From NCBI GenBank assembly GCA_001787755.1, contig MFYJ01000014.1, forward strand, positions 1 through 64,000: a stretch of 64,000 bases of DNA. The letters run 5' to 3'. The notes beneath the pieces were generated by a model. That model was not told the origin of the DNA. It saw nothing but the letters and a program-made list of their open reading frames with translations, and did not search any database. The translations under genes were made by a program, and so were the position numbers. Source of the DNA: Candidatus Peribacteria bacterium RIFOXYB1_FULL_54_35. Lineage in GTDB: Bacteria; Patescibacteriota; Gracilibacteria; Peribacterales; Peribacteraceae. Of this stretch, positions 11,652-57,801 are shown piece after piece (positions within the stretch are counted from its first letter, which is position 1; every line of letters starts with the position of its first letter).

Positions 11652-12434
11652 GTGCTAGCCTCGCTTGCCGTGGTTTACGTATTTGTCCTCGTCGGGTCTT
11701 CTGTCGGTATTTGCGTGCTTCTCGGAGTGCGCGTACTTCTTCGCAACAGATCTGTTCGCAAGTTTGTCCGAAGTGTGCGGCAGCGGGTCCATTCGGCGGA
11801 GGAGCGGGGGAACGTTTTTGTTCAGGAAACTAAAATTGAGCGTCCCAGGAAAAGTCCCCGTACCTCCGCAATTGAGTTGCAGGAAGCACGGTCTCTCCTT
11901 CGTATGGCAGACAAGTCTTTTGCCCAAGAGAAAATTGAAGAGGCGGAACGGCACTATATCCAGGCTCTTACCATTCTGCCCGATGATGTGGATACCCGGG
12001 CCCAGCTTGCAAAATTCTATTTGCAGACAGGCCGTGAACAGAAAGCGGAAGTGATGTATATAGAACTCATCACCAAGCACGATGATGTGTCGTACTTCGC
12101 GAATTTGGGGCTGGCCTACTACAAGCAAAAAAAATACATTGAATCCTGCTGGAGTTACCGGGAGGCTTTGAAACGCGATGCAAAGAATCCTGAACGCGGT
12201 GCCGCGCTCGGACGCGCATGTATCGCTGCACATCGCTTCAAAGAAGCAGTGCCCCTTCTTGAGAAATCCTGCATGAGGCTCTCACGCGATACCGAGCTTC
12301 TCCACCTTCTTGCCGAGAGCTACCTGCAACTTGGGCACAGGGAGAAGGCGGAGGAAGCATACAAACGCATTAATAAGCTTGAGCCGTACAACGAGGGGGT
12401 AAAGGAAGCGCTGAAGGCCCTTGCAAAGGTGTAG
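11652..12434 (+). CDS. Membrane-anchored tetratricopeptide-repeat protein
   Basis: N-terminal hydrophobic segment, then TPR-like helices (AERHYIQALTILPDDVDTRAQLAKFYLQTGREQKAEVMY...). Confidence 0.8.
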   Translation: MLASLAVVYVFVLVGSSVGICVLLGVRVLLRNRSVRKFVRSVRQRVHSAEERGNVFVQETKIERPRKSPRTSAIELQEARSLLRMADKSFAQEKIEEAERHYIQALTILPDDVDTRAQLAKFYLQTGREQKAEVMYIELITKHDDVSYFANLGLAYYKQKKYIESCWSYREALKRDAKNPERGAALGRACIAAHRFKEAVPLLEKSCMRLSRDTELLHLLAESYLQLGHREKAEEAYKRINKLEPYNEGVKEALKALAKV

Positions 12435-12436: not shown

Positions 12437-13600
12437 CTATCTTTGCATGACCGAAGGGAGCATTTCCGTAATGTAAGAGTGCAGCATGCTGGCGATGAGT
12501 CTATGGCCTTTTGGGGAGGGGTGATCGTAGTCAATGAAGAACTCGTCCCAGAATGCTCTGATCGTTTCGGGGTTGTCCCTGTTTGTTTCGGCGATAATTT
12601 CAGCGGTGCTCTTCGTGTCCTCTTCGTCCCCACGTACATGCGATGCAAGCATCTTCTGGAGAATCTCTAAGAGGTCAATGAAGTATATTCCCTGTTCTTC
12701 TGCAAAGGTTTGTATGGTGCGTTGTGGATGTGCGTGAGCCTCTTCCAGTCCCAGTTGGAAATCGAACGGAGTGGCAAGAATGACAAACGGGATGTTCTTT
12801 TCTTTTGCGATGGAGATCATTTGCAGTATCCACCAGAGGGCATCGTTCCATGCTTTCTGCACCTCAGGATCCTGAGGGTCCACAATGAGCTTCGCTATAT
12901 CCAGGATTTCTTTCTTCTGTGCTTTTTCAGCTATTTTTTCGCCGGTGAAATCCCGGAATCGAATTCTCCCATACATATCCTTCATGAAAAGGTAGAGAGC
13001 GCTTCTCTGCCCGAAGACATAATCCATATGCTTCTGTAAGTCGATGATATCGATGATTGGCATGTCATAGATGTCGTTCAGTGTGAATTGCAGGACGATG
13101 AGGTCAGGATGAAATTGCATCCCCCGCTTGAGATCGTAGTATTCCTGGTATGGGGAATTCATTGGGGCTGCAGTGTTTATAACCTCTACAGTGATGGGTT
13201 CCTCCTTCTCCGAAAGTTGCCTGTTCAGAGATTCTTCAAGCAGGAACGCGTATGTCTCCTTATCGTGGACGCCGTGACCAAAGGCGATGGAATCGCCAAG
13301 CAGAAGAATACGTTTTGTATTTTCCGGTTTCTGCAGGGAAAGCTCTGCGCTGCGGAAACCAAAGGAGTTTGTGGTGAATGGTACATCGTGGAACATGCTG
13401 AATTGGTTTTTCTTCAGCTGGAACAGTTTTTCTTTGTCGTACTCAAATATGCCGTATGGTTCGAATTTCTGCGGGGTGTATTGCAGGCGGGCCAGAGCTT
13501 CCGCTCCCCCGAAGAAGATACTGATGGAGGAGACGCAGAGGAGGAGGTTTATTCCAGTTCTGCGTAGACGGATTCTTTTCTCGGTTGGTCGGTTCTGCAT
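12437..13600 (-). CDS. SGNH/GDSL-hydrolase-like membrane-anchored protein, array member P1
   Basis: N-terminal TM; ILLLGDSIAFGHG, APMNSPYQEYYDLKRG, LQFTLNDI, FIDYDHPSPKGH (GDS / Asn / DxxH blocks). Confidence 0.85.
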   Translation of the reverse strand: MQNRPTEKRIRLRRTGINLLLCVSSISIFFGGAEALARLQYTPQKFEPYGIFEYDKEKLFQLKKNQFSMFHDVPFTTNSFGFRSAELSLQKPENTKRILLLGDSIAFGHGVHDKETYAFLLEESLNRQLSEKEEPITVEVINTAAPMNSPYQEYYDLKRGMQFHPDLIVLQFTLNDIYDMPIIDIIDLQKHMDYVFGQRSALYLFMKDMYGRIRFRDFTGEKIAEKAQKKEILDIAKLIVDPQDPEVQKAWNDALWWILQMISIAKEKNIPFVILATPFDFQLGLEEAHAHPQRTIQTFAEEQGIYFIDLLEILQKMLASHVRGDEEDTKSTAEIIAETNRDNPETIRAFWDEFFIDYDHPSPKGHRLIASMLHSYITEMLPSVMQR

Positions 13601-13654
13601 GGTACTGTGTGATACAGGGGGAGAAATCCTACCACAATTTTTTTATGTGTATCT

Positions 13655-14863
13655 TTATTCTGCACCAAGATGCAACGCATTGAGAATAACGGGCTGTAGG
13701 ACGCTCGCAACGAGCTCGTGGCCTGCGGCTGAGAGGTGATCGTAGTCCAGGAAGAACACTTCCCAGAAGTCCTGAAGTAATCTGGAGCCGTCTTGTCTCC
13801 ACTCTGCGATAATTTGGTTTGCAGTCTTTTCTTTATCTGTTTGCTCCACAAGAAGCAGCCAGAGAATATCCAGCAGATCCACGAAGTAACTATCTTCTTC
13901 TTCTGAGAACTCTCTGAGTTTCTGTTGTGGGTAGGCGAACTTCTTTTCAAGAGTGAGCTGGAAGTCGAAAGGGGTGGCAAGAATGACGAATGGAATGTCC
14001 TGTTCCCTCGCGAGAGCTGTCATATGTCGTATCCAGCTGAGCGCATTTTCCCATTCTTCTATAACTTCGGGATTCTCCGGTTCAAGCACAAGCAGCGCCG
14101 CGTTGAAGTTTTCCTTTTGCGCCGCTTTCTGCGCGATATTTGCTCCTGTGGGGTCTTTGAATCGTATGCGTGCCGCGATGTCTTTCAGGAAGAGATAGAG
14201 TGCGCTTCTCTGCCTGAGGATATGGTCGAGATTCGATATATTATGTATGCCGAGTACATAATCGTGGCTGATGATTTCCAAGTCGCCTTCTTCCATTCCC
14301 ATGTCCCTGAAAATCCACCTTGCGAACGGTTCGATAATGTCATTCAGCGTGATCTGGAGGACGATGATATCGGGGCTGAACGCAAGGCCCCGCTTCATGT
14401 CGTGATATTCCTGGAACGGGGAGTTGCCCGGAACAGATGTGTTTATTACTTCGGCAGCAATCGCACTCTCCTGTTCTACAAGATACTCGTTGAGCGATTG
14501 CTCCAGGATATAGGAGAATATCTGGTCATCATTCACACCGTGTCCAAAAGAAACAGAGTCGCCTACCACGAGAACGCGCACGGTGTTCGCTGGTTTCTCG
14601 AGGGGAATTTCCTTCCCCCGAAAACCGTAGGAATTTGTGGTGTAGGCGCCTCCCCAGTACAGCCCGGTTGCATTTTTTTTGAGGCCAAATACCTTCTCTC
14701 TGTCATATTCGAACATGCCCGTGTACTCGTACTTCTGCGGCGTGTACCAGATACGCGCAATAAGTTCCGCACCCCCGAAGAAAAAAATAATTGATCCTGC
14801 ACACAGCAGGAGATTGAGAGCCATCCCTCGGGAGCGATTTTCTTTCTTCCCTCTGCGAAACAT
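13655..14863 (-). CDS. SGNH/GDSL-hydrolase-like membrane-anchored protein, array member P2
   Basis: LVVGDSVSFGHGVNDD, VPGNSPFQEYHDMKRG, LQITLNDI, FLDYDHLSAAGH. Confidence 0.87.
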   Translation of the reverse strand: MFRRGKKENRSRGMALNLLLCAGSIIFFFGGAELIARIWYTPQKYEYTGMFEYDREKVFGLKKNATGLYWGGAYTTNSYGFRGKEIPLEKPANTVRVLVVGDSVSFGHGVNDDQIFSYILEQSLNEYLVEQESAIAAEVINTSVPGNSPFQEYHDMKRGLAFSPDIIVLQITLNDIIEPFARWIFRDMGMEEGDLEIISHDYVLGIHNISNLDHILRQRSALYLFLKDIAARIRFKDPTGANIAQKAAQKENFNAALLVLEPENPEVIEEWENALSWIRHMTALAREQDIPFVILATPFDFQLTLEKKFAYPQQKLREFSEEEDSYFVDLLDILWLLLVEQTDKEKTANQIIAEWRQDGSRLLQDFWEVFFLDYDHLSAAGHELVASVLQPVILNALHLGAE

Positions 14864-14930
14864 GGGCCCCTTTTTACCTTAAGGCAATGCCGATGGCAAT
14901 TACTGGCTCCACTTTCCTTGTATGCAATCT

Positions 14931-16139
14931 TTATTCCGCAGCGAGATGCAATGTATTGAGGATGGCAGGCTGCAGGATGTTTGCCATGAGTTCGTGTCCT
15001 GTGGGCGAAGGGTGATCGTAGTCCAGGAAGAACATTTCCCAGAAGTCCTGGAGCAGAGGAGAGTCATTCTGCCTGCATTCTGCGATGATCTGATTTGCAG
15101 TTTTTTCTTTGTCTGTTTTCTCCACAAGGAGTTGCCAGAGGATGCCCAGCATGTCTATATAGTGGATATTTTCCTCTGTGGCGAATTCCTGCAGTTTTCG
15201 TTGCGGGTGGGCCAACTCTGTCTCACGGGAAAATTGAAAGTTGAATGGCGTAACAATAAGTATGAGGGGAATGTTCTGCTCTTGAGCGATGGCTATCATG
15301 CGATGCAGCCAGCTCAATGCATTTTTCCATGCGTCCTCTACTTCAGGATTCTCCGGTTCATCCACCAGCAGCCCTGCTGTGAATTTTTCCCTTCGCTTTG
15401 CTTTCTCGGCGGTATTTTTTCCTGTGGGATCCTGGAATTGTATGCGTGTTTGCATGTCCTTCAGAAAGAGGTAGAAGGCACTGTGCTGTCTGAGTGCGTT
15501 GTCCAGGGATGTCATGTTCTGTTTGCCAAACACGAAATCACGGCTGACATTTTCCAGGTTGCCTTCTTCCATGCCCATTTCCTCGAGAATCCATCCCGCG
15601 TTTTCCTCAATGATGTCATTCAGCGTGATCTGCAGGACGATGATATCGGGGTCATACGCAAGACCACGTTTCATGTCGTGATATTCCTGGAATGGGGAAT
15701 TGCCTGGGACGGAGGTATTGATGACTTCAAATGCGGGAGCCCCCTCCCGTTCTGTGAAGTACCTGTTGAGCGATTGTTCCAAGAAGTAGGAGTATGTCTC
15801 ATTGTCATTGACGCCATGTCCAAAGGAAATAGAATCACCCACAACGAGGACACGTACGGTGTTTTCTGGTTTCTCAAGAGAGATCTCCTTCCCACGGAGA
15901 CCACGGGAATTGGTTGTGAAGTGCCCGCCGTGATAGTAACTGTCATTATTGCTCCTCAGATCAAATACCTTCTCACTGTCATATTCAAACATGCCGCTGT
16001 ACTCGAGTTTCTGCGGTGTGTATTTGAGCTGGGCCAAGAGTTCGGATCCCCCAAGAAAGATACTGACTGAGCTCGCGCACAGCAGGAGATTAAGGGCCAA
16101 TCCGCGGGTATGGTTTTCCTGTTTGTGTATGTGGAACAT
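14931..16139 (-). CDS. SGNH/GDSL-hydrolase-like membrane-anchored protein, array member P3
   Basis: LVVGDSISFGHGVNDN, VPGNSPFQEYHDMKRG, LQITLNDI, FLDYDHPSPTGH. Confidence 0.87.
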   Translation of the reverse strand: MFHIHKQENHTRGLALNLLLCASSVSIFLGGSELLAQLKYTPQKLEYSGMFEYDSEKVFDLRSNNDSYYHGGHFTTNSRGLRGKEISLEKPENTVRVLVVGDSISFGHGVNDNETYSYFLEQSLNRYFTEREGAPAFEVINTSVPGNSPFQEYHDMKRGLAYDPDIIVLQITLNDIIEENAGWILEEMGMEEGNLENVSRDFVFGKQNMTSLDNALRQHSAFYLFLKDMQTRIQFQDPTGKNTAEKAKRREKFTAGLLVDEPENPEVEDAWKNALSWLHRMIAIAQEQNIPLILIVTPFNFQFSRETELAHPQRKLQEFATEENIHYIDMLGILWQLLVEKTDKEKTANQIIAECRQNDSPLLQDFWEMFFLDYDHPSPTGHELMANILQPAILNTLHLAAE

Positions 16140-16147
16140 TTCATAAC

Positions 16148-16176
16148 ATTATACTAAAAATGAGTATTGCTGGCAA
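16148..16176 (-). promoter_or_regulatory. Sigma70-type promoter for array member P3, predicted leaderless
   Basis: Minus strand reads TTGCCA-17 nt-TATAAT-8 nt-ATG (-35 at 16171-16176, -10 at 16148-16153, ATG at 16137-16139). Confidence 0.75.
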
Positions 16177-16283
16177 TTCTGTCCTTCCCCCTATTGAGTG
16201 TATTTCTGTGCCTTTGGCAGCTCAGTTTGACGGTTGGCATGTATTTTTTATGCCCCTGGAGGTTTGGATCTTTTTATCACGAA

Positions 16284-17519
16284 TCATTCATTATTCTCTT
16301 TCGCTTGCGATGCTGTCAGTGCTTCCAGTACGAGAGGATAGAGTTCCTCTGCGATGAGTATGTGGCCTGTTGCAGTGGGGTGGCAGTAGTCGCTGAAGTA
16401 CTCTGTCCAGAAGTCTGAGAGCATCGTAGATTTAGCTCCTTTCGCCTGCTCTTCGAGAATGATCTGATCCGCGGTTTTTTCTTTGCCGGCATGCTCAGCC
16501 AGGAGTTCCCAGAGCTTTTGCAGTATGTCTGCGAAGTAGAGCTTTTCTTCGGTTGCGAACCCCCTAAGTTTCTGTTGCGGGTATGCAAAACTCTCTTCCA
16601 CACTGAACTGGAAATCGTAGGGGGTCACAAGAAGCACGATGGGGATGTTTCTTTCTTGGGCGGTGCTTGTCATGCCGCGTATCCAGCCCAGAGCATTCTC
16701 CCATGCTTTTACTGCTGTGGGGTTTTCCGGTTCGGTCACCAGCAGTGCTGAAGTGTAGTTTTCCTTGCGGTATGCTTTTTCCCTCACGTGTTTACCGGTG
16801 GGGTCGCGGAAACGAATACGTGTTTGCATGTCTTTCAGGAAGAGGTAGAACGCACTGTACTGCTTGAGCACATGGTCGATCTGCGATATGTTTGCGATGC
16901 CGAGGACGTAGTCATGACTTATGATTTCCAGATTGCCTTCATATATTCCCATATCCTCGAGTATCCATTTTGCGTGTGGTTCAATAATATCATTGAGGGT
17001 CACTTGGAGGACTATGGCATCCGGGTTGAACTGCAACCCCCGCTTGAGATCGTGGTATTCCTGGAACGGAGCATTCCCGGGGACTGCGGTATTGACTACT
17101 TCGACGGTACTATCCCCCTTTCCTTCATCGGAAAAATGTTTGTTGAGTGCTGCCTCGAGCAGAGAGGAAAACGTCTGTTCATTATCCATGCCGTGGCCGA
17201 AGGTAACGGAGTCTCCGACCATGAGGACACGCAAGGTCTTTGGGGGTTTTTCTACAGAGGTCTCTCTTCCGCGAAAACCGAAGGAGTTTGTCGTAAAGTG
17301 CCCACCGCGGTAGATGTCATCGATATTTTTTCTTAAGCCAAATACCTTCTCTTTGTCGTATTCGAACATGCCCGTGTACTCGTACTTCTGCGGTGTGTAC
17401 CAGATACGAGCGACAAGTTCTGTTCCTCCAAGGAAAATACTCACAGAACCTATGCAAACCAGGAGGTTGATCCCCAGTCCGCGCAGCAAGTGTTTCCATG
17501 GCTTCTCTTGGTCAGACAT
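16284..17519 (-). CDS. SGNH/GDSL-hydrolase-like membrane-anchored protein, array member P4
   Basis: LMVGDSVTFGHGMDN, VPGNAPFQEYHDLKRG, LQVTLNDI, FSDYCHPTATGH; start chosen at MSDQEKPWKHL (ORF track begins at 17561). Confidence 0.87.
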   Translation of the reverse strand: MSDQEKPWKHLLRGLGINLLVCIGSVSIFLGGTELVARIWYTPQKYEYTGMFEYDKEKVFGLRKNIDDIYRGGHFTTNSFGFRGRETSVEKPPKTLRVLMVGDSVTFGHGMDNEQTFSSLLEAALNKHFSDEGKGDSTVEVVNTAVPGNAPFQEYHDLKRGLQFNPDAIVLQVTLNDIIEPHAKWILEDMGIYEGNLEIISHDYVLGIANISQIDHVLKQYSAFYLFLKDMQTRIRFRDPTGKHVREKAYRKENYTSALLVTEPENPTAVKAWENALGWIRGMTSTAQERNIPIVLLVTPYDFQFSVEESFAYPQQKLRGFATEEKLYFADILQKLWELLAEHAGKEKTADQIILEEQAKGAKSTMLSDFWTEYFSDYCHPTATGHILIAEELYPLVLEALTASQAKENNE

Positions 17520-17582
17520 GGGACTCTTTTTACAGGAAGAAGGGAGGTGGATCAATCCCATACTCTGTGGTCTTTGCAGGCC

Positions 17583-18818
17583 TTATTCCAGAGTATGAGC
17601 AACAATGGGGAGCAGAATATCCGCAATGAATCTATTTCCAGCAGGTGAGGGGTGATCATAATCTAGGAAAAATGTGTTCCAGAAGTCTCTCCAGCGCTCC
17701 GGTTGTTTCCCAATGCTCTCGGCGATGATTTCATCCGTATTTCTCCCATCGGGATTTTCACCTATCAAGTTAGATGCAAATTGCTCCTGGAGAATGGCGA
17801 GGAGATCCACGAAGGGTATTTCCCGATTCTGCGCGAAAACACTAAGAGTTTGTTGTGGGACGGCAGTTTCTTTACTGAGCGGGAACTGAAAATTATAGGG
17901 AGTGAGGAGGATGATCAGAGGTACATTCTCTCTTTCCGCAGTCTCTGTAATTTTCTGGATCCACCCCAATGCTCTTTGCCATGAAGCAAGAACTGTAGGG
18001 TGGTTGGGGGTATAGACGAGTGATAACACGGAAAATATTTCTTCATTCTGAGCTTTCTCAGCAATCCGCTCTCCACCGGGGTCTCGGAAACGGATGCGAC
18101 TTCCCCAGTCCTTCAGCATGCAGTAGAGAGCGCTTCTCTGCCTGAGGACGGTATCAATATGCGGGAAATTTGCAGTACCGAAAATGTAGTCGGCATTCTC
18201 CATTGCACTGTTGCTGCCCTGTTTTCCAGCTATGCCCATTTCCTCGAATATCCAGAAGCCTCTTTCTTCAATAATGTCGTTGAGCGTGAGTTGCAGTAGT
18301 ACGACATCCGGCTCAAATGCCAGCCCCCTTTTAAGATCATGGTATTCCTGGAACGGCGAGTTCCCTGGGGCAGCTGTGTTGATGACTTCCACAGTGGTGT
18401 TCTCTCCTCGTTCGTCGAAGAGATTGTTGAGCGATTGCTCGAGGTATGTGTCGAAAGTTTCACTATCGAGTACACGGAATCCGAACGCGATAGAATCTCC
18501 TACAAGGAGTACCCGTTTGGCGTCTTTTGGTTTTGCCATAGGCACCGCATTGTCGCGGTAGCCAAAAGCGTTGGTTGTGAAGGGGACTTCTTTGAAGGTT
18601 GTGGTTAGGTTACTTTTCAAGCGGAACAGTTTTTCACTGTCGTATTCAAAAATACTTGCGTCTGAAAGTTTCTGTGGCGAATACCAAATACGTGCGACCA
18701 GTTCCATTCCGGCAAGGAAGAGGCAAATAGAAAGAATACTGAGGAGCAAATTTTTTCCAAGTCTTGTACACCAGTGTGTGTGGGGCGAGGTTTGAATGGT
18801 GGTGCGAGTTTTCTTCAT
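17583..18818 (-). CDS. SGNH/GDSL-hydrolase-like membrane-anchored protein, array member P5
   Basis: LLVGDSIAFGFRVLD, APGNSPFQEYHDLKRG, LQLTLNDI, FLDYDHPSPAGN; ATGA overlap with P6. Confidence 0.87.
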   Translation of the reverse strand: MKKTRTTIQTSPHTHWCTRLGKNLLLSILSICLFLAGMELVARIWYSPQKLSDASIFEYDSEKLFRLKSNLTTTFKEVPFTTNAFGYRDNAVPMAKPKDAKRVLLVGDSIAFGFRVLDSETFDTYLEQSLNNLFDERGENTTVEVINTAAPGNSPFQEYHDLKRGLAFEPDVVLLQLTLNDIIEERGFWIFEEMGIAGKQGSNSAMENADYIFGTANFPHIDTVLRQRSALYCMLKDWGSRIRFRDPGGERIAEKAQNEEIFSVLSLVYTPNHPTVLASWQRALGWIQKITETAERENVPLIILLTPYNFQFPLSKETAVPQQTLSVFAQNREIPFVDLLAILQEQFASNLIGENPDGRNTDEIIAESIGKQPERWRDFWNTFFLDYDHPSPAGNRFIADILLPIVAHTLE

Positions 18819-20077
18819 CGGTAAGAGGATTCCTGAGTAAGGGGCAGCTCTGCTATGTCTGTCCTATGCAGAGCTTTGAGGACTTCGGGCTGCAGGATGC
18901 GTGCAATAAGCTTGTGTCCCGACGGTAGTGCATGGCATATATCGTAGAAGAGGCTGGACCAAAAATCCTGGAGCTTCTCTGGGTTCTGCTGGATGGTTTG
19001 GGCAATGATTTCAGACGTGTTCCCCCCTTCTCCCGTGAAGGCAGCGTATTCTTCGAAGAGTGCATGCAACAAATCGACATATGTGATGTTCTGTTCCTCC
19101 GCGAGCTCCCGCATGATGCGCTGTGGGTGCGCTGTTTCCTCTGGGCGGCTGATTTGGAAAGCAAAGGGTGTCACAAGTAGGAGAAGGGGGATATTGTTCT
19201 CCTTGGCTATCTGTATTGTCTTGCGAGTCCAGCTGAGCGCGTATTCCCACTCCTGCAGTATCTGAGGATTCTGCGGGTCATCTACCAATACCTCTGCGAA
19301 TCCTGCTTCCATCTGCTGTGCAATATCTGCGATATGTTCACCGCTTGCATCGCGGAACCGAATGCGATTTCCCAGATCTTTTAGGAACAGATAGAACGCG
19401 CTTTTCTGCCTGAGCAGATAGTCGGCGCGGAAAGCCAATGGGAGTGTCTTCTTCCCAAAGAGATAATCAAAAAACTGTGCCTGCGAGGTATATGCCTCAT
19501 TAAAGCCCATGTTTTGCAATTGCCATGTCCCATAGTTTTCCCTCACATCGTTGAGTGTGAATTGGAGAATGACAAGGTCGGGATTGAAGAGGAGAGATCG
19601 TTGAAGGTCGTGGTATTCCTGAAAGGGAGTATTGCCAGGGACTGCAGCGTTGATCACTTCGGCAGAAATTGCTGTGTGCTGGTCGGTGAAATACTGGCTG
19701 AGTTTTTCTTCCAGAAGTACAGGAAATGCCTCGCTATCTAGCACTTTTGTTCCAAAGGCGACTGAGTCCCCTAAGACAAGTATCCGGATGGTGTTCTTGG
19801 GTTTCTCCACGGAATAATCCCTGCTCCCGCGATGTCCATAGGAATTCGTAGTGTATGGGACACCGAAATATGTACCTGCGTGATTCTTCTTCTGCCTGAA
19901 AATGGTCTCTACATCGAATTCAAAATGCCCTTCGGATCGGATTTCCTCGGGTGTGTACCATATTCGTGCAAGTAGTTCTGCAACTCCAAAGAAGATTGCG
20001 ATTGAGAGAGTGCAAAGGAGGAGGTTTACCGTAAACTCCTTCGCACGGGCATTCCATGCGGAAGTCGGATTTCGCAT
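18815..20077 (-). CDS. SGNH/GDSL-hydrolase-like membrane-anchored protein, array member P6
   Basis: LVLGDSVAFGTKVLD, VPGNTPFQEYHDLQRS, LQFTLNDV, FYDICHALPSGH; start chosen at MRNPTSAW (ORF track begins at 20119). Confidence 0.86.
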   Translation of the reverse strand: MRNPTSAWNARAKEFTVNLLLCTLSIAIFFGVAELLARIWYTPEEIRSEGHFEFDVETIFRQKKNHAGTYFGVPYTTNSYGHRGSRDYSVEKPKNTIRILVLGDSVAFGTKVLDSEAFPVLLEEKLSQYFTDQHTAISAEVINAAVPGNTPFQEYHDLQRSLLFNPDLVILQFTLNDVRENYGTWQLQNMGFNEAYTSQAQFFDYLFGKKTLPLAFRADYLLRQKSAFYLFLKDLGNRIRFRDASGEHIADIAQQMEAGFAEVLVDDPQNPQILQEWEYALSWTRKTIQIAKENNIPLLLLVTPFAFQISRPEETAHPQRIMRELAEEQNITYVDLLHALFEEYAAFTGEGGNTSEIIAQTIQQNPEKLQDFWSSLFYDICHALPSGHKLIARILQPEVLKALHRTDIAELPLTQESSYR

Positions 20078-20131
20078 GCCATTGTTGTACAGGAAGCAAG
20101 GTTCCTTCTCAATTCGCAATGCTTGTCATTT

Positions 20132-21376
20132 TCATTCCTTGGTTTTGCGCAGCGTGTCGAGCACAACAGGCTGAATGGCTTTTGCTATGAATCGGTGTCC
20201 TTCGATTGTCGGATGGCAGAAATCCTGGAAAAGTGCGTACCAGTACTCTCTCAGAGCGCTTGGGTTGCTCTGGCTTGTCTCTGAAATCACTCGTGCGATA
20301 GTCTCCGGATTGGTTTCTTCCCCCACCCGAGACAGTGCGAATTCCGTCTGCATTTGTTCGAGGATGTCTATATACAACACGTTCTGCTCCTGTGCGAATT
20401 TTTTCAGAATATTCTGTGGATGTGCGGATTGCGTCGTTCGTTCCATCTGGAAGTCCCAGGGTGTTGCTAGGATAATGAAGGGAATCCCTCTTCGGTTCGC
20501 GAGATTTGTCATCTCTCGCATCAGGCCGAGAGTAGTTTTCCAGCTTTCTTCAATCTCGGGGTTGGTGGGCTTACTGACAAGATCTCTCACAAGTACTATC
20601 TCCTTTTTCTGTGCGTTTGCCACAATGTTATTACCCGTGGTATCCCCGAATTGCATCCGGCTATACACATCTTTCAGGAAGAGGTAGAGGGCACTGTGTT
20701 GTCTGAGGCGGTAATCTATTGAGAAGAGTCGGGGGAGCTTCTTTTTTCCCCAGAGGTAGTCTTGGAACTGAGCGAATTTATTTTCTATGTGTGTGAGGTC
20801 GGCTTCATGGAGCAACTGGTAAATGCTTTCATCATGGGATGGTACAACATCATTGAGCGTAAATTGCAGAATGATTATGTCGGGGTCGAACTGCAGGTTT
20901 CTCTTGAGGTCGTGATATTCTTGGAATGTTGCATTGCCCGGAGTGGCGGCATTGAAAACTTGGATAGTTTGTTGTTCACCTTGCTTTGCAAAATGATTAT
21001 TCAAATCTTCTTCAAGAAAACGCGGGTACGACTCGTGATCGCGAAGCGCGAATCCCATAGAGACAGAGTCTCCAAGTATGAGAATGCGTTTAGTGTTCTT
21101 TGGTTTCTCCACAGATATTTCTGGGGTGCGATATCCAAAAGAATTCGTCGAGAAGGGCACTCCGCGGTACTCGCTTCGCAGGTTTCGCTTCCACCGGAAA
21201 AACTTTTCCCTGTCGTACTCAAAATCCTTCTGGGATTCTATCTGCTCAGGGGCATACCAAAGGCGCGCTAGTAGTTCAGCGCCCCCCAAGAAGAGGCCTA
21301 CTGAAGCAATGCACAGCAGTATATTGATGCCGAGCTCCCGCAACGCAGTTTTCCTACTCTTGTTTCTGTCTGGCAT
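20132..21376 (-). CDS. SGNH/GDSL-hydrolase-like membrane-anchored protein, array member P7
   Basis: LILGDSVSMGFALRD, TPGNATFQEYHDLKRN, LQFTLNDV, FQDFCHPTIEGH; start chosen at MPDRNKSRK (ORF track begins at 21415). Confidence 0.86.
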   Translation of the reverse strand: MPDRNKSRKTALRELGINILLCIASVGLFLGGAELLARLWYAPEQIESQKDFEYDREKFFRWKRNLRSEYRGVPFSTNSFGYRTPEISVEKPKNTKRILILGDSVSMGFALRDHESYPRFLEEDLNNHFAKQGEQQTIQVFNAATPGNATFQEYHDLKRNLQFDPDIIILQFTLNDVVPSHDESIYQLLHEADLTHIENKFAQFQDYLWGKKKLPRLFSIDYRLRQHSALYLFLKDVYSRMQFGDTTGNNIVANAQKKEIVLVRDLVSKPTNPEIEESWKTTLGLMREMTNLANRRGIPFIILATPWDFQMERTTQSAHPQNILKKFAQEQNVLYIDILEQMQTEFALSRVGEETNPETIARVISETSQSNPSALREYWYALFQDFCHPTIEGHRFIAKAIQPVVLDTLRKTKE

Positions 21377-21420
21377 GGAACTTTTATACAGCAGGAGGTG
21401 CGGAGGGACAACCATTGCCG

Positions 21421-22632
21421 CTACTCATTCATGCTTTTGAGATTCAGTGCCTCAAGTACAATGGGCATGAGAATGTCCGCTGCCATCTTATGTCCTGCAG
21501 GGGTGAAATGTACATGATCCAAAAAGAGTTCCGCGTGGAGATCCTGCAGTAAGGTGGAGCCGTTTTTCACCCACTCATCGATAATTTCGTTTATCGTATT
21601 CCTTCCTCCTTGCTCATCAACGAGGCGTTGCCACATTGCTGCCAGGAAATCTGCGAAGTAAATATTTTCCTCCTCAGCGAACTGCTTGAATTTATGTTGC
21701 GGGAAGGCGTACTCCTCATAGTACCCTGACTGGATACCAAAGGGGGTAGCGAAGAGCACGAAGGGGATATCATGCTCTTTCGCTATGGCTACCATTATTT
21801 GTATCCAACTCAGGGCATAATCCCACGCTTCTCGTACTGCGGGGCTTTCTGGTTCTGTGAGCAGCGGCATGAAGTCGGAATTTTCCTCCGACGCCGCTTT
21901 TTTTGCGATGTGTTTTCCAGTGAGGTCTTTAAATCGTAATCGTGCGTTTATATCTTTCAGGAAGAGGTAGAGAGCGCTGTGTTGTCTAAGCAGGTAGTCG
22001 AATTGCGGTAGTCTTTTCTTGCCTGTGACATAGTTGATGCTTGTAGTCTCCGATTCGCTTTCCTTCATTCCCATTGCCAAGAATGTCCATTGTGACTGTT
22101 CATGTATGATATCGTTCAATGTGACCTGGAGAACGATTATGTCCGGATCAAATTTGAGGCCCCGCTTGACATCGTGGTACTCCTGATACGGAGAGTTGCC
22201 TGGTGCGGCTGTGTTAATCACTTCAATCCGGACATTTTCTCCACTGCCGGCGAATTGCTCATTGAGTTGCTGTTCCAGATAATACGGAAAAACTTCGTCG
22301 TCATTTACGCCCTGACCGAACGCAACAGAGTCGCCAGCTATGAGAATACGTTTCGTGTTTTCAGGTTTTTCTATGGCGATTTCTCTGCCCCGGAATCCGT
22401 GGGAATTTGTTGTGAAGGTGCTTCCCCAATTTGGGCCGTGAAAATTTGCCTTAAGTCGGAATACCTTTTCTTTGTCGTATTCAAAGAAGCTGTCGCTGTT
22501 CACTTTCTGCGGAGAGTACCACAGACGTGCCAGAGTTTCTGATCCGCCAAGGAACACGCTCACGGAAACAATACAGAGGAGCAGGTTCACTCCCATTACA
22601 TGAAGGCGCCGTTTCTTTCCTTGAGATTTCAC
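21421..22632 (-). CDS. SGNH/GDSL-hydrolase-like membrane-anchored protein, array member P8
   Basis: LIAGDSVAFGQGVNDD, APGNSPYQEYHDVKRG, LQVTLNDI, FLDHVHFTPAGH; proposed GTG start at 22632 just after the ferredoxin stop (ORF track begins at a TTG at 22662). Confidence 0.84.
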   Translation of the reverse strand: MKSQGKKRRLHVMGVNLLLCIVSVSVFLGGSETLARLWYSPQKVNSDSFFEYDKEKVFRLKANFHGPNWGSTFTTNSHGFRGREIAIEKPENTKRILIAGDSVAFGQGVNDDEVFPYYLEQQLNEQFAGSGENVRIEVINTAAPGNSPYQEYHDVKRGLKFDPDIIVLQVTLNDIIHEQSQWTFLAMGMKESESETTSINYVTGKKRLPQFDYLLRQHSALYLFLKDINARLRFKDLTGKHIAKKAASEENSDFMPLLTEPESPAVREAWDYALSWIQIMVAIAKEHDIPFVLFATPFGIQSGYYEEYAFPQHKFKQFAEEENIYFADFLAAMWQRLVDEQGGRNTINEIIDEWVKNGSTLLQDLHAELFLDHVHFTPAGHKMAADILMPIVLEALNLKSMNE

Positions 22633-22634: not shown

Positions 22635-22940
22635 CTAGTACTCGGTAAGTTCTACGGTGCAATCCCCCTGCACCTGTGCTTGGCAGGCGAGCCTCTCCGG
22701 GTCACTCACGATGCCCATATTCTCTTCGCGGGTATTGCGTTCACTGAGGTTTTTCATCCCTTCTCTCACATTGCACAGGCAGGTGGTACAGAAGCCATTT
22801 CCGCCGCAGGCGTGTTCAATGGGAACACCGTTATCCAGTCCGATTTGCAGCAGCGTCTGGCCGTTTTTCCCCTGAACGGTTTTCTTCTGGTCACCGTAAA
22901 TGAATGTCACCTGTACCATGAACTCCTGCATTATGTGCAT
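22635..22940 (-). CDS. [2Fe-2S] ferredoxin (adrenodoxin/ISC-type)
   Basis: EHACGGNGFCTTCLCNV...LACQAQV four-Cys pattern; start codon uncertain among several N-terminal Met. Confidence 0.9.
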   Translation of the reverse strand: MHIMQEFMVQVTFIYGDQKKTVQGKNGQTLLQIGLDNGVPIEHACGGNGFCTTCLCNVREGMKNLSERNTREENMGIVSDPERLACQAQVQGDCTVELTEY

Positions 22941-22975: not shown

Positions 22976-23752
22976 ATGCGCTCCCACTCTATGGAAGGTT
23001 CCCGAACCATTCTCTCGGTTTCCAATCTCCACATTGCTGTGGGGGGCACAGAGGTGGTGTGCGGGGTGGATTTGAGCATTGGTCAGGGGGAGGTGCACGC
23101 AGTCATGGGGCCGAATGGGTCAGGAAAATCCACGCTCGTGAGTGCGCTCATGGGGCACCCGGCATATGAGATCACGGCGGGCAGTGTGCACTTTCTTGGA
23201 CGGGATCTCCTTGCCATGCAGCCGCATGCGCGTGCGCAGGCAGGACTCTTCCTCGCATTTCAGTATCCCAAGGAGATTGCCGGTGTCACACTGCGCAACT
23301 TCCTCTTCGCTGCGTACAACGCGCAGATGGCTGTGCGTGACCCTGCGCACAAGAAAGTCTCTCCCATCAAATTCAAGAAGTTTCTGGAGGAGCACATGGC
23401 GAAGCTCAAAATTGATCCTTCCTTCGCGGAGCGTGCGCTGAACCAGGGATTTTCCGGAGGAGAGAAGAAGAAGGCGGAAATCCTGCAGATGAGCGTTCTC
23501 CAGCCTGTACTGGCACTGCTGGATGAAACCGACAGCGGGCTCGATATCGATGCTTTAAGGATTGTCGCAGAGGGCATCAATGCGCTCCGCAGCCCGGAAC
23601 GGGCAATTCTCCTCGTCACGCACTACGCGCGTATTCTGGAGTACGTCACACCGGACCATGTGCATGTCATGGTAGGCGGCAAAATTGTGCAGAGCGGAGG
23701 GGCTGCATTTGCACACCAGCTGGAAGCGGAGGGGTATAAGCGGTTTCTCTAA
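22976..23752 (+). CDS. sufC: Fe-S cluster assembly ATPase SufC
   Basis: GPNGSGKSTLVSALMGHPAYEITAG, FLAFQYPKEIAGVTLRNFL, FSGGEKKKAEILQM, LLDETDSGLDIDALRIVAEGIN; start may be the second Met (MEGSRTIL). Confidence 0.96.
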   Translation: MRSHSMEGSRTILSVSNLHIAVGGTEVVCGVDLSIGQGEVHAVMGPNGSGKSTLVSALMGHPAYEITAGSVHFLGRDLLAMQPHARAQAGLFLAFQYPKEIAGVTLRNFLFAAYNAQMAVRDPAHKKVSPIKFKKFLEEHMAKLKIDPSFAERALNQGFSGGEKKKAEILQMSVLQPVLALLDETDSGLDIDALRIVAEGINALRSPERAILLVTHYARILEYVTPDHVHVMVGGKIVQSGGAAFAHQLEAEGYKRFL

Positions 23753-26700
23753 GCTTCGAGCTGCCGGAGGATCGCAATCGCATTTCCGCTCGGTGAATAG
23801 TAATGGCTGTCCGTATGCCAAACGTTCACGAGGCTCGGTGCGAGCCAGTGCTCACGGTCAGGGCTCCACTCCCATTTTCCCTGCTCAAGACTGAAGCGTG
23901 TGTACACGGAGAGCGGAGAGAGTCCTTTTGTCTTTTCCACAGTGTAGATGCCGTTCTCGTCCGGCTGGCCGCAGAGCTCATGTCCGCGCGTGAAGCGCTC
24001 CCATTGGCCTCTGTCGAGAGGGGCGGAATAGAGTGCGCCGTACTGCGCAAGCAGCATTTCGAATCCGATTTTCGTAATCGCGTTCTTCCCATCCCCTGCG
24101 AATTTTCTTGCTGTGAACTCCAGTCTTCGCAGGAATTCCCGGCGTTGCACATTTGTTTCCAGTTTTTTGTACTGTTCAAGGAGCAGATTTTCCGACTCAC
24201 GGTGTTCGGGGTCATCTATGTTGCTTACAAAAAGCGCGATGATCTTGCGTACAGAACCGAGGGGATTTTCCGGAATTGGCATGCAGAGCCCCTCGGTAAA
24301 TATTTCTCTGGGAATGGATGTATTCTGTTCCTGCAGAAAGGTGAGGTACCATCCTCCCATATGGTTGAAGTAATAGTTAGCTCCTGTTTTTTCATCTACC
24401 ACTTCTATACGTGTCGTGCTGCTGTTTCCCGTTGTTTTCTTATATGTTTTGTCCGCGGAATCCAAGAAGGTTCCCGTGGATACAATTGGTTTTCTCAGGT
24501 AGAGGAAATACCCACTCTCGCTCTCTGGCGGACAGTAGTATGCAACGTGTTCATGCCGTCGTTCCCCCTTATGTGAATCAAGGTATTCGTGGGGATATGC
24601 ATGCCATACGCCCGGGTTCCGCTTTGCAGTCTGACGGGCAAGTTCCTGCTGCTGCAGCATCTCCGCTCTTTTCTCCCCAAGTTTTTTCTCTTCCTCATGT
24701 TTCTTCCTGCGTCGCTCAATGGTCTGCTGACGGCGCTTTTCCAGTGGTACAGAGAGCTGGCTGATCATCTCGCGCGCTCCGTTCTGGAGGAGGAAGTTCC
24801 GTCCGCCGATTACCCTGTCGCTGCCGCCCATTTCTCCATTGCCATTGCTGATCGCATACGTGCCTCTTGTGCTCTGCATCACGAAGAATTCGGGAGGTTC
24901 CGCTCCGCTCAATGGGTCTCCGTACACATAGGTGGCCAGGACCATCGCGTGCCCGTTGCCGAGTATCCGTGCCTCAAAGAAGACCGCGACAACATTATCG
25001 AAAGAGAACTGTTCTTCGGGGCGCTGCGGAGGATACCGGAGGCTGCGGATGCAGCTCTCCATCCGCGGGTAATCGTTGCCGATGTTACCGCGACTCCTCG
25101 GGATATCGTACTTCACGAAGACGGCAGGGGTGTTGGAGTCGTGCATGTACATTCTCTCCAGCCCGTCACTCCTCACGAACCCACGGCCGCGGTTTTCTTC
25201 CTTCTGTGCAAGTACAATAGCCGCCTCTGTCATGCGCTGTTTCGCTGCATCCGCACTCGCATTCTCAGGGAGGTCCGGTAGACGAGCTTCCGAAGAGACG
25301 CCATTCGCAACAAAGCGCGCATAGTGTGCGTACTTCGCTTTACTGTCTGTTGTTTCTACGCTGGAGGGAAGCCAGTTCTCAAGAGAGAAAAGTCTTACAA
25401 GTACAGGGTCATACACCCGTCCTTCCGGCTCGTCGGTGGTGTGGGGGTGTACCTTGTCGAGCTCTGTCCGGAGTCCTATATCTGCAACACATTTCCTGTA
25501 GATTGCTCCGCGTGCTCCGAAGGAGAAGCCTTCCGGCAGGCCGGATACCGTGTCCTGCGGTACTGCGAATGTGAGGTCATTTGCGTGTTGGAAGAGGTAC
25601 TGTGCAACAAGCTCTGCCCGAGTTTTCCCCCCATTTCTCTCCAGTGCTGTACTTCCGGTTTCGCTGAGTTTTTTCCCGAAGACTTCCATTTCCCCGAGTT
25701 TTTGGATCAGGTCGTTCAGCTCGTCCATTCTTACCTGGAGTCTCCGTGCATCCGATACTTCAGTGGGGAGCTTCTCACGCTCCTTGAGCGCTGCGAGGTA
25801 CGTTTCTTCCATGCGGTGCTGCGTGAGAAAAACGATGCTTTCGCGCATGGCACGGCGGATTTCCACTTTCGAAATTTTTGGGGAGGTGGGGAGGGGGACA
25901 TTCCAGTCACTGTCGATTTGACCCCGGCTTACCTCCTCCCATGAGAGCCCGTTGCCGGAGAGCTCAAAGAGACGGGAGTAGAACACGGGGAGGAAAATTT
26001 CTTTGAATTCTTTTCCATAGAACGCATCCAGGAATTTCGGGTGCTCTTTCCCGCTGTACACCATCTGCAGGAGTTCCGGGAACTCGCGCAGTTCTGTATG
26101 GAGGATGCTGAAGAACATCTTCTCGCGCATGCCGCGCTTCTGGACGTTCTCGGGAGAATCGTCCGCGTCTTCAAAGGGGTTATCTGAGATCATTTCCCCT
26201 GATGCTTTGGCAAGGAGGTCGTACGCTGTTTCACCGGTGGCTTTTTCCAGGCTGATCTTCGCAAGTAACCACGCAGGTGCTCTCTGGATGAAGCGGCGGT
26301 CTGCCTCCTGATCCATACCGTACTTTACAATCCCCACTGCAACTTCCACCGCCATGATCGGCCAGAAGGTCCGGCTCACGCCAAAGCGCAGCACGGCAAG
26401 CGTCTCCGCTGCACTCACTGCTGTCAGCATTTCCTGTGCTGTCACTTTTTCTTGCTGGGCTTCTGATAGATTTTTTATGTTTACTGTAATTTCCGTGCCG
26501 CCATCTTTGTATGTGAATTTTTCTTCCTGATTAGGGGGGTCTGCGACGAACCCGGCATCTTTAATTTCCCTGATCATCTCCTGCCGTTGCTCTGCGATGG
26601 ATTTGCGGATTTCCTTTATCTCCTGCCAGTCGAGGTATGTGCGGTAGGCGAGAAGTGCAGCTCCGCCGGCACGGCCAAGCGTCATCTCCTTCGGCAGCAG

Positions 26701-29550: not shown

Positions 29551-30348
29551 TCAACGAGTTCCAGGGATGTCGCTGGGAAGGGATGGGTGTGTTGAGGGAA
29601 GCATTGTATCGCCGTATCCTGTGACACCGCTTGGGCTTACAGGTCCTGTTCCCGGGGCGGTGATGGCACTTCCTGGTTCCGTGAGGCCGGTGACCGGTGT
29701 GACAGCTTCCGCTGCACCGCTGGTTTCTCTCACCAGAGCGTCTGCTTCTCCGGCGAGTTCCACTTGTGCACCTCCGAGGTACTCAAAGAGCTCGCTTAAG
29801 CCCCATGCCGCTGCGGCAATGAGGAGAATGGAGAAGATGACAGGGTGCTCCCTCGGGAGCCAGGTGATGGCACGCCATGCTTTGTGCCAGAGGCCCTTCT
29901 CCTTCTCCGTGCCGGCCTGCTCCTCCGATTGCTCTACGCGCTCAAGAACCTGTTCCTTCGCTTCTCCTTGGCTGAGCCCCTCCGGGCTTGTTTCCGTGAG
30001 GAAGTCGCGCTTCGCCGCAAGGCTTTGCTGCACCTCGTGCAGTGTTTCTTCCAATTCAAAAAGCGAGACGTCGGGGTTCTTTGCCAGCTGCTCGCTCCCC
30101 ACACGAATGAGCTCTTCCATCTCGTCCCGGTAGATGTTGCTGTGGTACTCACTCAGGGTCTCCTGTTCCGCCATGATCTGGTCCACCAGCTGCCCGCGCT
30201 CGGTGGCACTCTGGTACATCCTGCGCACTTCGCCGATGTCCATCTCCAGCAGCTGTGAGAGACGTTCAGGTGTGGGGATGAACGGTTGCACTTCCGCTGT
30301 TTCCTGCCTGTCTGGCATTGCCTCTGGCTGAGTGGCAGTTGCGCTCAT
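29551..30348 (-). CDS. Single-TM protein of unknown function, partner of the giant protein
   Basis: Charged helical N terminus, TM segment PVIFSILLIAAAAWGLSELFEYL, Gly/Pro/Thr-rich tail; ATGA-type overlap with upstream gene. Confidence 0.75.
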   Translation of the reverse strand: MSATATQPEAMPDRQETAEVQPFIPTPERLSQLLEMDIGEVRRMYQSATERGQLVDQIMAEQETLSEYHSNIYRDEMEELIRVGSEQLAKNPDVSLFELEETLHEVQQSLAAKRDFLTETSPEGLSQGEAKEQVLERVEQSEEQAGTEKEKGLWHKAWRAITWLPREHPVIFSILLIAAAAWGLSELFEYLGGAQVELAGEADALVRETSGAAEAVTPVTGLTEPGSAITAPGTGPVSPSGVTGYGDTMLPSTHPSLPSDIPGTR

Positions 30349-30767
30349 ACGTAATTGCGGATGAAGGAACGGAGTAAGGCGTTTCGGACGAGTGAGAGAG
30401 CTGCGACACTCTCAACTTCTTCATCTGTTTTTGCCTGGCGGAGTATTGCCTCAATGATGCGGAAGAGCGGTTTTGGTCCCAGTGCGAAGAAGAGCTCAGC
30501 GAGATCTGCCTGGTGCACATCTTTCAAGTCAAACTCGGAAACGAGCTTGGCGATTTTCTTCTCATTCTTTGCCTTCTTGATCTCTTCCTGAAATACGTGA
30601 AGCTTGGGATCGCGGATTTTCAGGAAGGAAACTCTCATGCGCAAATGCTTCTTTGTATCCTCAAATTTCTGGGTTTCCTCCCGTACCTTCCAGCCTTCCC
30701 GCAGCTTTTCGGGGAGTGACAGAAAGAGTTTCTGCTCTGCCGGTGTGAGGTGGAGTTCATTCATCAT
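30345..30767 (-). CDS. Small helical protein of unknown function
   Basis: 140-aa ORF overlapping the next gene by 4 nt (30345-30348); charged helical composition. Confidence 0.7.
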   Translation of the reverse strand: MMNELHLTPAEQKLFLSLPEKLREGWKVREETQKFEDTKKHLRMRVSFLKIRDPKLHVFQEEIKKAKNEKKIAKLVSEFDLKDVHQADLAELFFALGPKPLFRIIEAILRQAKTDEEVESVAALSLVRNALLRSFIRNYV

Positions 30768-36120: not shown

Positions 36121-37254
36121 CTATAACTGGTTGAGCCTGTCTGCGATTTCTTCGGTAGAGGAGAGCTGGTTGTAGAGTTGCTGTGCAATGATTTTGTTCC
36201 CCATCACAGAATAATGCCCTGGGGCTGTGGGGTGTGTAGTCTCAGCATTGGTTAAAAAGAAAGATTGTTTCGTCTGGTGCGCCAATCCCTTGTAGAACGA
36301 TACGAGGTCAATAAAGAATAGATGTTCTTCTTCTGCAATTTTGCTGGCGTATGCGTATGGTGAATAGGGATGCGAGTTTTCCTCGTGGTCGTACGGGAGG
36401 TATACGACGACAAGTACACTGCCTCCTTTGTCAGTGAGGGTCTTGGTTTCTGTCATAATTACATGAAGCAGATCCTTCGTTCCCTCTAGATCTAAAATTG
36501 TGTGTACTTTGTTCTTCTTTCTAGAGAGGCTGCCAAGAAGCTCTGTGATACGCAATTTCGATTGAATGCTTGTGAGTGCGATGAGTGTGCGGTGTTTGAA
36601 TGCAGGTTTAGGCACAGGCACGTTTGCCACTACAAGATTGCCTCCTTCTACCTGAGAGACTTGAGGGCGGGGTAGCTGCAAGAAGGTGCTTTCTCTCATC
36701 CGTACAATGTCTGGTGTCAGGATAGTGAAGATGTGCACATCATGGTCTATGTTTGCCGCCTCTTTTCGGTATCGCAGGAAGGATTGGTCAGTTCCGTATC
36801 CTTCTTCCCCCAAGTTCACGCTCTCTATGCGTTGGTCTATTTCTCCCAGGAGATGACACCAGGTTTCCGAGTCATCCACACCCATGCCGAATGTGTAGGA
36901 GTCTCCCGAGCAGATAATACGCAACTTTCCCTCAGGAATGTGCTCTTCTGTGTGTTGCTTCCCACGGAATCCTCTGTTGTTTCTCGTGACGGTTTTTCCT
37001 GGGCCAAATGCGTTTTCCACCTGTGCATCTGGTTTTCCTGTCCATCCGATTTCAGGATCGTATTGCATGAATTTGTGGTCCTGTACTAAGAGGAATCTTC
37101 GCACCCCATAGAAGGTTATAGCGGTGCTCGCTACTCCCTCTACTACAAAAAAGAGTATGCAGGTGATTATTATCATCCAGAAAAGATACGTACAAGCCCT
37201 CCTCAATCTTGTCATTCTCATCATAGTCTCCGTGCTGTGAAGTGTGGCAAGCAT
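36121..37254 (-). CDS. Divergent SGNH-hydrolase-like membrane protein (ninth paralogue, P9)
   Basis: N-terminal TM; NNRGFRGKQHTEEHIPEGKLRIICSGDSYTFGMGVDDSETW; ETTHPTAPGH; start may be internal (MMRMTRL). Confidence 0.75.
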   Translation of the reverse strand: MLATLHSTETMMRMTRLRRACTYLFWMIIITCILFFVVEGVASTAITFYGVRRFLLVQDHKFMQYDPEIGWTGKPDAQVENAFGPGKTVTRNNRGFRGKQHTEEHIPEGKLRIICSGDSYTFGMGVDDSETWCHLLGEIDQRIESVNLGEEGYGTDQSFLRYRKEAANIDHDVHIFTILTPDIVRMRESTFLQLPRPQVSQVEGGNLVVANVPVPKPAFKHRTLIALTSIQSKLRITELLGSLSRKKNKVHTILDLEGTKDLLHVIMTETKTLTDKGGSVLVVVYLPYDHEENSHPYSPYAYASKIAEEEHLFFIDLVSFYKGLAHQTKQSFFLTNAETTHPTAPGHYSVMGNKIIAQQLYNQLSSTEEIADRLNQL

Positions 37255-48278: not shown

Positions 48279-48467
48279 TCACCAGCCTTCGCAGGAGGCC
48301 ACAGTCATAGGCCGTGGAGGAATGTGCTATTCAAACTTCCTTGTTTTTTGGCCTCCTGCTACGGCCGGCGAGATTGGCTATTCTTCAATTTCCGGAAGTG
48401 CCATGTGCCTGTCTTCGCTAAAACGAGGCCGCTTCAGATACGTGCGGGCAGATGAGTCCGTGGGTAT

Positions 48468-49352: not shown

Positions 49353-49397
49353 GGCTTCATACTAAGCGCTTAGGAGGCTTTCGTGTAGAATTTTTCG

Positions 49398-51963: not shown

Positions 51964-51986
51964 AGCAGTACGGGAGGGGGAGTGGG

Positions 51987-52448: not shown

Positions 52449-52452
52449 GGTG

Positions 52453-54250: not shown

Positions 54251-54310
54251 AGTGCCATGGTAGCAGTTTCTTTGGCTGTTACCTGCAGGAAGAGGTGTTA
54301 TGATCGTTCT

Positions 54311-56651: not shown

Positions 56652-56706
56652 TTATCCCCTTGGCCATTGGACGGCATTCGCTGTCGGCTCTATGATGCGT
56701 TTCTGC

Positions 56707-57741: not shown

Positions 57742-57749
57742 GCAGGCAG

Positions 57750-57790: not shown

Positions 57791-57801
57791 CCGCTTGCCG
57801 C

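What the first reader, a model, noticed from the sequence alone, without database searches (positions are those of the whole stretch)
12437..22632. Eight consecutive same-strand paralogues of a TM-anchored SGNH-hydrolase-like protein
Eight ORFs of ~390-430 aa in a row share the same architecture: a short cytoplasmic tail, one TM, an ARxWYxPQK...FEYDxEKxFxLKxN juxtamembrane block, TTNSxGFRG, a GDS block, PGNSPFQEYHDLKRG, LQxTLND and a C-terminal DxxHxxxxGH. They take up ~10 kb of what looks like a compact genome. The topology resembles AlgJ/AlgX/DltD-type extracytoplasmic O-acyl transferases/esterases (established fold knowledge), but no MBOAT acyl donor gene is visible here. Possible roles are a set of envelope-glycan acyl transferases/esterases with different specificities, or an antigenic-variation or recombination reservoir. 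This is my main candidate for an undescribed system.
Basis: partly seen in the sequence, partly recalled or inferred. Interest (0 to 1): 0.85.

Follow-up and report, generated by a model that had tools for sequence, protein, structure and literature searches.

The report
Eight tandem membrane-anchored SGNH esterase-like genes
A small symbiont-like bacterium (Candidatus Peregrinibacteria) carries eight side-by-side, long-diverged copies of a gene for a membrane-tethered surface enzyme of the common SGNH/GDSL esterase fold, where its two nearest sequenced relatives carry one; the enzyme type is ordinary, but the size and upkeep of the array in a 1.56 Mb genome are unusual and its substrate is unknown.

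Summary
Eight same-strand paralogues (387-434 aa, 40-66% identical) fill 12437-22632. All are SGNH/GDSL proteins (Pfam PF13472/PF00657). Two were modelled (pLDDT 84 and 86) as one N-terminal TM helix, a small beta juxtamembrane segment and an SGNH domain. Ser, Asn, Asp and His of the SGNH blocks are intact in all eight; the block II Gly is Met in copy 1.

The two genomes of the same genus hold exactly one copy at the same place (ferredoxin | SGNH | TPR-holB-secA). In 25 of 29 other genera of the family, ferredoxin and TPR are directly adjacent with no SGNH between them. The nearest outside relatives are in Geobacteraceae and Omnitrophota, not the SGNH proteins resident in this lineage. So one gene most likely arrived horizontally and grew by stepwise duplication, partly before species split.

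There is no sign of gene conversion, and copies are under purifying selection where measurable. This argues against an antigenic-variation reservoir. AlgX/DltD/PatB membership is not met, no MBOAT and no convincing AT3 donor exists in the genome, and the nearest solved folds are esterases/hydrolases. Best reading: membrane-anchored extracytoplasmic acyl-ester hydrolases with diverged specificity, probably acting on surface glycans. The substrate is inferred only.

The parts
12437..13600 (-). SGNH copy 1 (P0001, 387 aa); block II Gly to Met, lacks ~20 aa after TLND; groups with the single copy of L014
13655..14863 (-). SGNH copy 2 (P0002, 402 aa); modelled, TM helix 8-39, SGNH domain 94-396
14931..16139 (-). 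SGNH copy 3 (P0003, 402 aa), 66% identical to copy 2
16284..17561 (-). SGNH copy 4 (P0004, 425 aa)
17583..18818 (-). SGNH copy 5 (P0005, 411 aa); C-terminal motif GN instead of GH
18815..20119 (-). SGNH copy 6 (P0006, 434 aa from TTG; overlaps copy 5 by 4 bp)
20132..21415 (-). SGNH copy 7 (P0007, 427 aa), among the most divergent
21421..22632 (-). SGNH copy 8 (P0008, 403 aa from GTG at 22632; ORF extends to TTG at 22662)
22635..22940 (-). 2Fe-2S ferredoxin (Fer2), upstream gene on the same strand; conserved flank of the insertion
11652..12434 (+). membrane-anchored TPR protein; other conserved flank of the insertion, next to holB and secA
16148..16176 (-). promoter-like TTGCCA-17-TATAAT in the longest intergenic gap, before copy 3 (consensus match only; promoter-like sites are not enriched in the region)

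Best explanation
The array is a set of eight membrane-anchored, extracytoplasmic SGNH/GDSL-type acyl-ester hydrolases. Shown: homology, the SGNH fold (predicted for two copies), an intact Ser-Asn-Asp-His set in all eight, a single N-terminal TM helix preceded by Lys/Arg (N-in, catalytic domain outside), genus-specific presence of the gene between ferredoxin and TPR genes, eight copies in this lineage against one in two congeners, and purifying selection on the younger pairs. Inferred: the ancestral gene came by horizontal transfer from a lineage related to the Omnitrophota/Geobacteraceae copies; each enzyme uses the Ser nucleophile to attack an O-acyl ester presented at the membrane surface, most likely on a surface glycan or glycolipid, and releases the acyl group; the copies were kept because the variable segment right after the block III Asn (a lid-like insert) and residues beside the catalytic His diverged to give different substrate or position preferences.
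For: Pfam PF13472/PF00657 matches for all eight, best E per protein 1e-6 to 7e-12. Models pLDDT 84.2 and 86.2, pTM 0.80. The nearest solved folds are CgnD (a hydrolase, PMC10070186), acetylxylan esterases, TesA and sialate O-acetylesterase. Catalytic residues are invariant and block II Gly is kept in 7 of 8; PMC12148441 describes that Gly as typical of SGNH hydrolases and its loss in PatB and S. pneumoniae OatA. Synteny and empty site. Trees and AU tests. Omega 0.12-0.19 where measurable. Glycan context of relatives: PMT_2 glycosyltransferases beside the L015, L016 and L094 copies; an SGNH domain at the C-terminus of a long multi-TM, GT-C-like ORF in L051; APS kinase beside another SGNH locus of the same genome. 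No MBOAT; only a sub-threshold AT3 match with no matching ORF.
Against: No activity or substrate evidence. The array itself sits among housekeeping genes, not in a glycan cluster; L017 and L018, two of the close relatives, also lack glycan neighbours. Canonical block II Gly does not exclude transferase activity (S. aureus OatA keeps it; PMC9487903). The congener copy in L013 has lost the catalytic His (Asn), so a catalytic role is not essential everywhere. dS is saturated for most pairs, so constraint on the older copies rests on conserved motifs rather than on omega.
Confidence: 0.5

Rival explanations
1. They are the extracytoplasmic transfer subunits of envelope O-acylation systems (AlgX/AlgJ, PatB, DltD or OatA-like), each moving an acyl group from a membrane donor to a different glycan position.
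For: TM-anchored SGNH topology as in PatB; copy 1 has lost the block II Gly, as PatB and S. pneumoniae OatA have (PMC12148441); P0006 has a weak sub-threshold DUF459 match (17.1 bits, cut-off 27.2).
Against: No MBOAT in a 97.9%-complete genome and only a sub-threshold AT3 match with no matching ORF. No ALGX, DltD or DHHW Pfam match. Fold hits are esterases. The residue before the catalytic His is Asp or Cys in 7 of 8, not the hydrophobic wall described for PatB.
Confidence: 0.18
2. They are surface lipases or lysophospholipases that strip acyl chains from lipids of a host or neighbouring cell, feeding a bacterium that cannot make its own fatty acids.
For: Ca. Peribacter is reported to lack fatty acid biosynthesis (PMC4736985); PlsC (PF01553) was not found in this genome and only one ketoacyl-synthase-like protein was seen; the fold matches include lysophospholipase/thioesterase TesA.
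Against: Expansion is confined to this one genome although the lipid lack is presumably shared by related genera; relatives occur in Geobacteraceae, which make fatty acids (family knowledge); several relatives lie near glycosyltransferases rather than lipid genes.
Confidence: 0.15
3. The array is a recombination reservoir for antigenic or phase variation of surface proteins.
For: Surface-exposed topology and many copies side by side.
Against: DNA identity 50-71%, longest identical run 35 bp, saturated synonymous sites, strongest conservation in the catalytic core, omega 0.12-0.19 on measurable pairs.
Confidence: 0.03
4. They are peptide- or amide-cleaving SGNH hydrolases acting on a secreted peptide, like CgnD.
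For: CgnD (8a2n) is the best fold match to both models and it releases a peptide from its leader (PMC10070186).
Against: Sequence identity is 12-14% with rmsd about 10 A over the whole chain; no precursor-peptide or RiPP genes were recognised near the array.
Confidence: 0.05

Closest known systems
Lipase_GDSL_2 / Lipase_GDSL (PF13472, PF00657; SGNH clan CL0264)
   Same: Blocks I, II, III and V with Ser, Gly, Asn, Asp/His; predicted SGNH fold; all eight exceed the PF00657 cut-off and six the PF13472 cut-off
   Different: Adds an N-terminal TM anchor, a conserved beta juxtamembrane segment (FEYDxEK...TTNSxGFRG) and a long variable insert after block III; block III reads TLND, not GxND
Single-copy relatives in Geobacteraceae (L015, L016) and Omnitrophota (L017, L018, L093)
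   Same: Same architecture, about 35-43% identity, one well-supported clade with the array
   Different: One or two dispersed copies, some beside PMT_2 glycosyltransferases; never an array in the genomes searched
CgnD, crocagin hydrolase (PDB 8a2n)
   Same: Best solved-structure match to both models (E 8e-8 and 2e-7)
   Different: 12-14% identity; acts in a RiPP pathway on a peptide (PMC10070186)
PatB (DUF459), OatA C-domain, AlgX, DltD
   Same: SGNH fold, extracytoplasmic
   Different: Not matched above cut-off by Pfam, no donor partner found in the genome, not among the top 50 fold matches

Membership tests
SGNH/GDSL hydrolase superfamily (PF13472/PF00657) | Profile match to Lipase_GDSL families | tested here: met
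   All eight above the PF00657 cut-off (27.8-46.5 bits against 23.6); six above the PF13472 cut-off, P0002 and P0005 just below it
SGNH/GDSL hydrolase superfamily (PF13472/PF00657) | Blocks I Ser, II Gly, III Asn, V Asp-x-x-His | tested here: met
   Ser, Asn, Asp, His in 8/8; Gly in 7/8 (Met in copy 1)
SGNH/GDSL hydrolase superfamily (PF13472/PF00657) | Flavodoxin-like alpha/beta SGNH fold | tested here: met
   AlphaFold2 models of copies 1 and 2; fold matches are GDSL hydrolases
SGNH/GDSL hydrolase superfamily (PF13472/PF00657) | Ester hydrolysis activity | not testable with these tools
   needs expressed protein
AlgX/AlgJ (PF16822) | Profile match to ALGX | tested here: not met
   No match at E up to 1 for any of the eight
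DltD (PF04914) | Profile match and DltB (MBOAT) partner | tested here: not met
   No match; no MBOAT in genome
PatB / DUF459 (PF04311) | Profile match above cut-off | tested here: not met
   Only P0006, 17.1 bits against cut-off 27.2
PatB / DUF459 (PF04311) | Non-Gly block II with hydrophobic wall | tested here: not met
   Gly in 7/8; residue before the catalytic His is D, C or V (criteria from PMC12148441)
OatA-type SGNH-AT3 (PF19040 + PF01757) | AT3 transmembrane domain fused or nearby | tested here: not met
   Single TM helix; only a sub-cut-off 22.8-bit AT3 hit in the genome, with no matching ORF
Antigenic-variation cassette array | Recombining copies with shared near-identical tracts | tested here: not met
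   50-71% DNA identity, longest identical run 35 bp

The most novel reading that the evidence does not exclude
The eight enzymes form a dedicated, lineage-specific surface-editing toolkit of an epibiotic Patescibacterium: each removes (or moves) a different acyl decoration on its own or its host's envelope, and copy number tracks host range or host defences. This would be an enzyme-level adaptation to host attachment in the Candidate Phyla Radiation.
Probability: 0.15. Interest if true: 0.6.

Novelty: new variant of a known kind. Interest (0 to 1): 0.36.

Why it matters
Patescibacterial genomes are small, so keeping eight long-diverged enzymes of one subfamily at one site (10.2 kb of 1.56 Mb) points to a real selective use, likely at the cell surface where these bacteria meet their hosts. 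The case gives a clean natural series (empty site in other genera, one copy in two congeners, eight copies here) for asking how surface enzymes diversify in such bacteria. The fold and chemistry are not new, and the substrate is unknown, so the value is moderate.

Tried and rejected
Rejected: assembly artefact (copies too divergent). Recombination reservoir. Defence system (no PADLOC match). Membership in AlgX, DltD, PatB, OatA. AT3 donor: the only hit (22.8 bits) lies at a place where I found no matching ORF. Eight copies as one recent clade: rejected by AU tests, p 0.025 and 0.012. Array derived from the SGNH family resident in Peribacteria: rejected, p 0.0013.

Led nowhere: viral contigs (no relative), plasmids (only 30% coverage matches in Ensifer), phmmer against PDB (no hit), literature searches for SGNH arrays in CPR bacteria. 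The promoter scan gave fewer sites than shuffles; terminator-like sites were 24 against 13.3 expected on both strands, mostly inside genes, and I drew nothing from them. Most dS values were saturated, so older pairs give no omega.

Full report
Observation. The eight ORFs exist as described. Pairwise protein identity is 40-66%, with about 80 invariant columns. All eight match GDSL-type lipase/acylhydrolase families in Pfam (best E per protein 1e-6 to 7e-12); NCBIfam gives only sub-threshold matches to SGNH esterase models. Gaps between genes are mostly short (-4 to 143 bp), and the gene before copy 8 on the same strand is a 2Fe-2S ferredoxin, so an operon is plausible but not shown. Copy 8 most likely starts at the GTG at 22632, right after the ferredoxin stop.

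Anatomy. Copies 1 and 2 were modelled with 14-row alignments: pLDDT 86.2 and 84.2, pTM 0.80 both. Both show one N-terminal helix (residues about 8-39), four short strands (about 51-76) and an alpha/beta SGNH domain. The hydropathy maximum is the N-terminal stretch in all eight, with 2-8 Lys/Arg before it, which by the positive-inside rule puts the catalytic domain outside. Ser, Asn, Asp and His of blocks I, III and V are invariant in the eight; block II Gly is Met in copy 1. The least conserved segment apart from the N-terminal tail is the 30 residues after block III (residues 181-210 of copy 2, mean pairwise identity 0.18-0.23, with gaps). Because it follows the oxyanion Asn directly, I infer that it lies at the active-site mouth.

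Where it comes from. The genome is 1.56 Mb, 97.9% complete. Its genus-mates are Candidatus Peregrinibacteria CG11_49_14 and CG10_49_10. Both hold one copy, 49-51% identical to copy 1, at the same place: sufC / ferredoxin / SGNH / TPR / holB / secA (the ferredoxin ORF was listed for CG10 but not for CG11, where my ORF filter left that stretch blank). In 29 other genera of the family the TPR gene was taken with its flanks; in 25 the ferredoxin gene is its direct neighbour (gap about 10-550 bp), and in none of the 29 is an SGNH gene of this family found in the flanks. So the gene entered between ferredoxin and TPR in the ancestor of this genus. The subfamily is otherwise rare: no strong match in 380 phylum genomes (the two congeners were not in that draw), 2 strong and 4 weaker of 384 Omnitrophota, 2 of 277 in the class of the Geobacteraceae hits, none in viral contigs.

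Trees. A 43-row tree joins the array family with Omnitrophota and Geobacteraceae copies (98/95 and 99/95), apart from twelve SGNH proteins resident in the same bacterial family; joining those two groups is rejected (AU p 0.0013). This favours horizontal acquisition, direction not shown. Copy 1 groups with the CG10 copy (94/92, 99/96); both also share Met in block II and lack most of the post-block-III insert. The eight are not one clade (AU p 0.025 and 0.012). Hence some duplication is older than the split from CG10, with later loss there, while copies 2, 3, 4 and 8 form a clade (100/99; 98/98) that grew later. The CG11 copy has Asn in place of the catalytic His.

Evolutionary mode. DNA identities are 50-71% and the longest identical run is 35 bp. 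Synonymous sites are saturated for most pairs; where measurable, omega is 0.12-0.19. This is what eight long-maintained, separately constrained enzymes look like, not a gene-conversion reservoir.

What it does. Fold comparison puts the crocagin hydrolase CgnD first (E 8e-8 and 2e-7), then acetylxylan esterases, TesA-like enzymes and sialate O-acetylesterases. The transferase families AlgX, DltD and DHHW are not matched; DUF459/PatB and SGNH-AT3 matches are below cut-off. MBOAT is absent from the genome and the only AT3 hit is below cut-off with no matching ORF. PMC12148441 reports that PatB and S. pneumoniae OatA lack the block II Gly and have a hydrophobic wall; seven of the eight here keep the Gly. 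PMC9487903 notes that S. aureus OatA keeps it too, so this is only a lean towards hydrolase. Relatives lie beside PMT_2 glycosyltransferases in L015, L016 and L094, and in L051 an SGNH domain ends a long multi-TM ORF that looks like a GT-C glycosyltransferase by eye. Others (L017, L018) have no such neighbours, nor does the array. Surface glycan deacylation is therefore the leading inference, not a demonstrated function. Lipid scavenging is a live rival because these bacteria are reported to lack fatty acid synthesis (PMC4736985) and PlsC was not found here.

Wider pattern. At a second conserved place, between ribosomal-protein genes and an APS kinase gene, this genome has one distant SGNH gene (L101) while CG11_49_14 has three in a row (two 41% identical, the third more distant and matching ALGX at 35 bits). 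So SGNH copy number changes at more than one site in this genus.

Verdict. A real, well-bounded, lineage-specific tandem expansion of a known enzyme fold. The organism and the copy number make it worth noting; the chemistry is expected to be ordinary.

Noticed in passing
window 23749-29520 (-): A 1923-aa protein with no Pfam match at E up to 0.01; shorter relatives (1664 and 1588 aa; 50% and 36% identical over about 1000-1100 aa) at the same place in both congeners, with two further unmatched small genes (29551-30767) conserved beside it.
   Followed up: partly
L013 7890-9185: The single-copy SGNH gene of CG11_49_14 has Asn (AAC) at the catalytic His of block V.
   Followed up: yes
L107 1852-5069 and L101 9052-10056: At the ribosomal-protein / APS-kinase locus the congener has three tandem SGNH genes (one matches ALGX, 35.1 bits) where this genome has one.
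   Followed up: partly
L101 11949-13935 (own genome, contig C11): Three tandem paralogues (42-49% identical) with a sulfotransferase-like PKTGGxWV motif near an APS kinase gene; no Pfam family assigned above cut-off.
   Followed up: partly
L097 7725-11038; L103 8379-15542: Distant SGNH genes lie beside or near NodU-type carbamoyltransferase genes, in L097 with an SxtJ gene as well; CgnD, the best fold match, also comes from a cluster with a carbamoyltransferase.
   Followed up: partly
L051 1-2478: An SGNH domain at the C-terminus of a long multi-TM ORF that resembles a GT-C glycosyltransferase, in another genome of the same phylum.
   Followed up: partly
window 36121-37254 (-): A ninth, very distant SGNH gene lies about 14 kb from the array (25 bits to PF13472, below cut-off).
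   Followed up: partly
window 46659-63821: Glycan-synthesis region: glycosyltransferases, polysaccharide deacetylase-like, GDP-mannose dehydratase-like, acetyltransferase and flippase-like ORFs (read by eye), 24 kb from the array.
   Followed up: no
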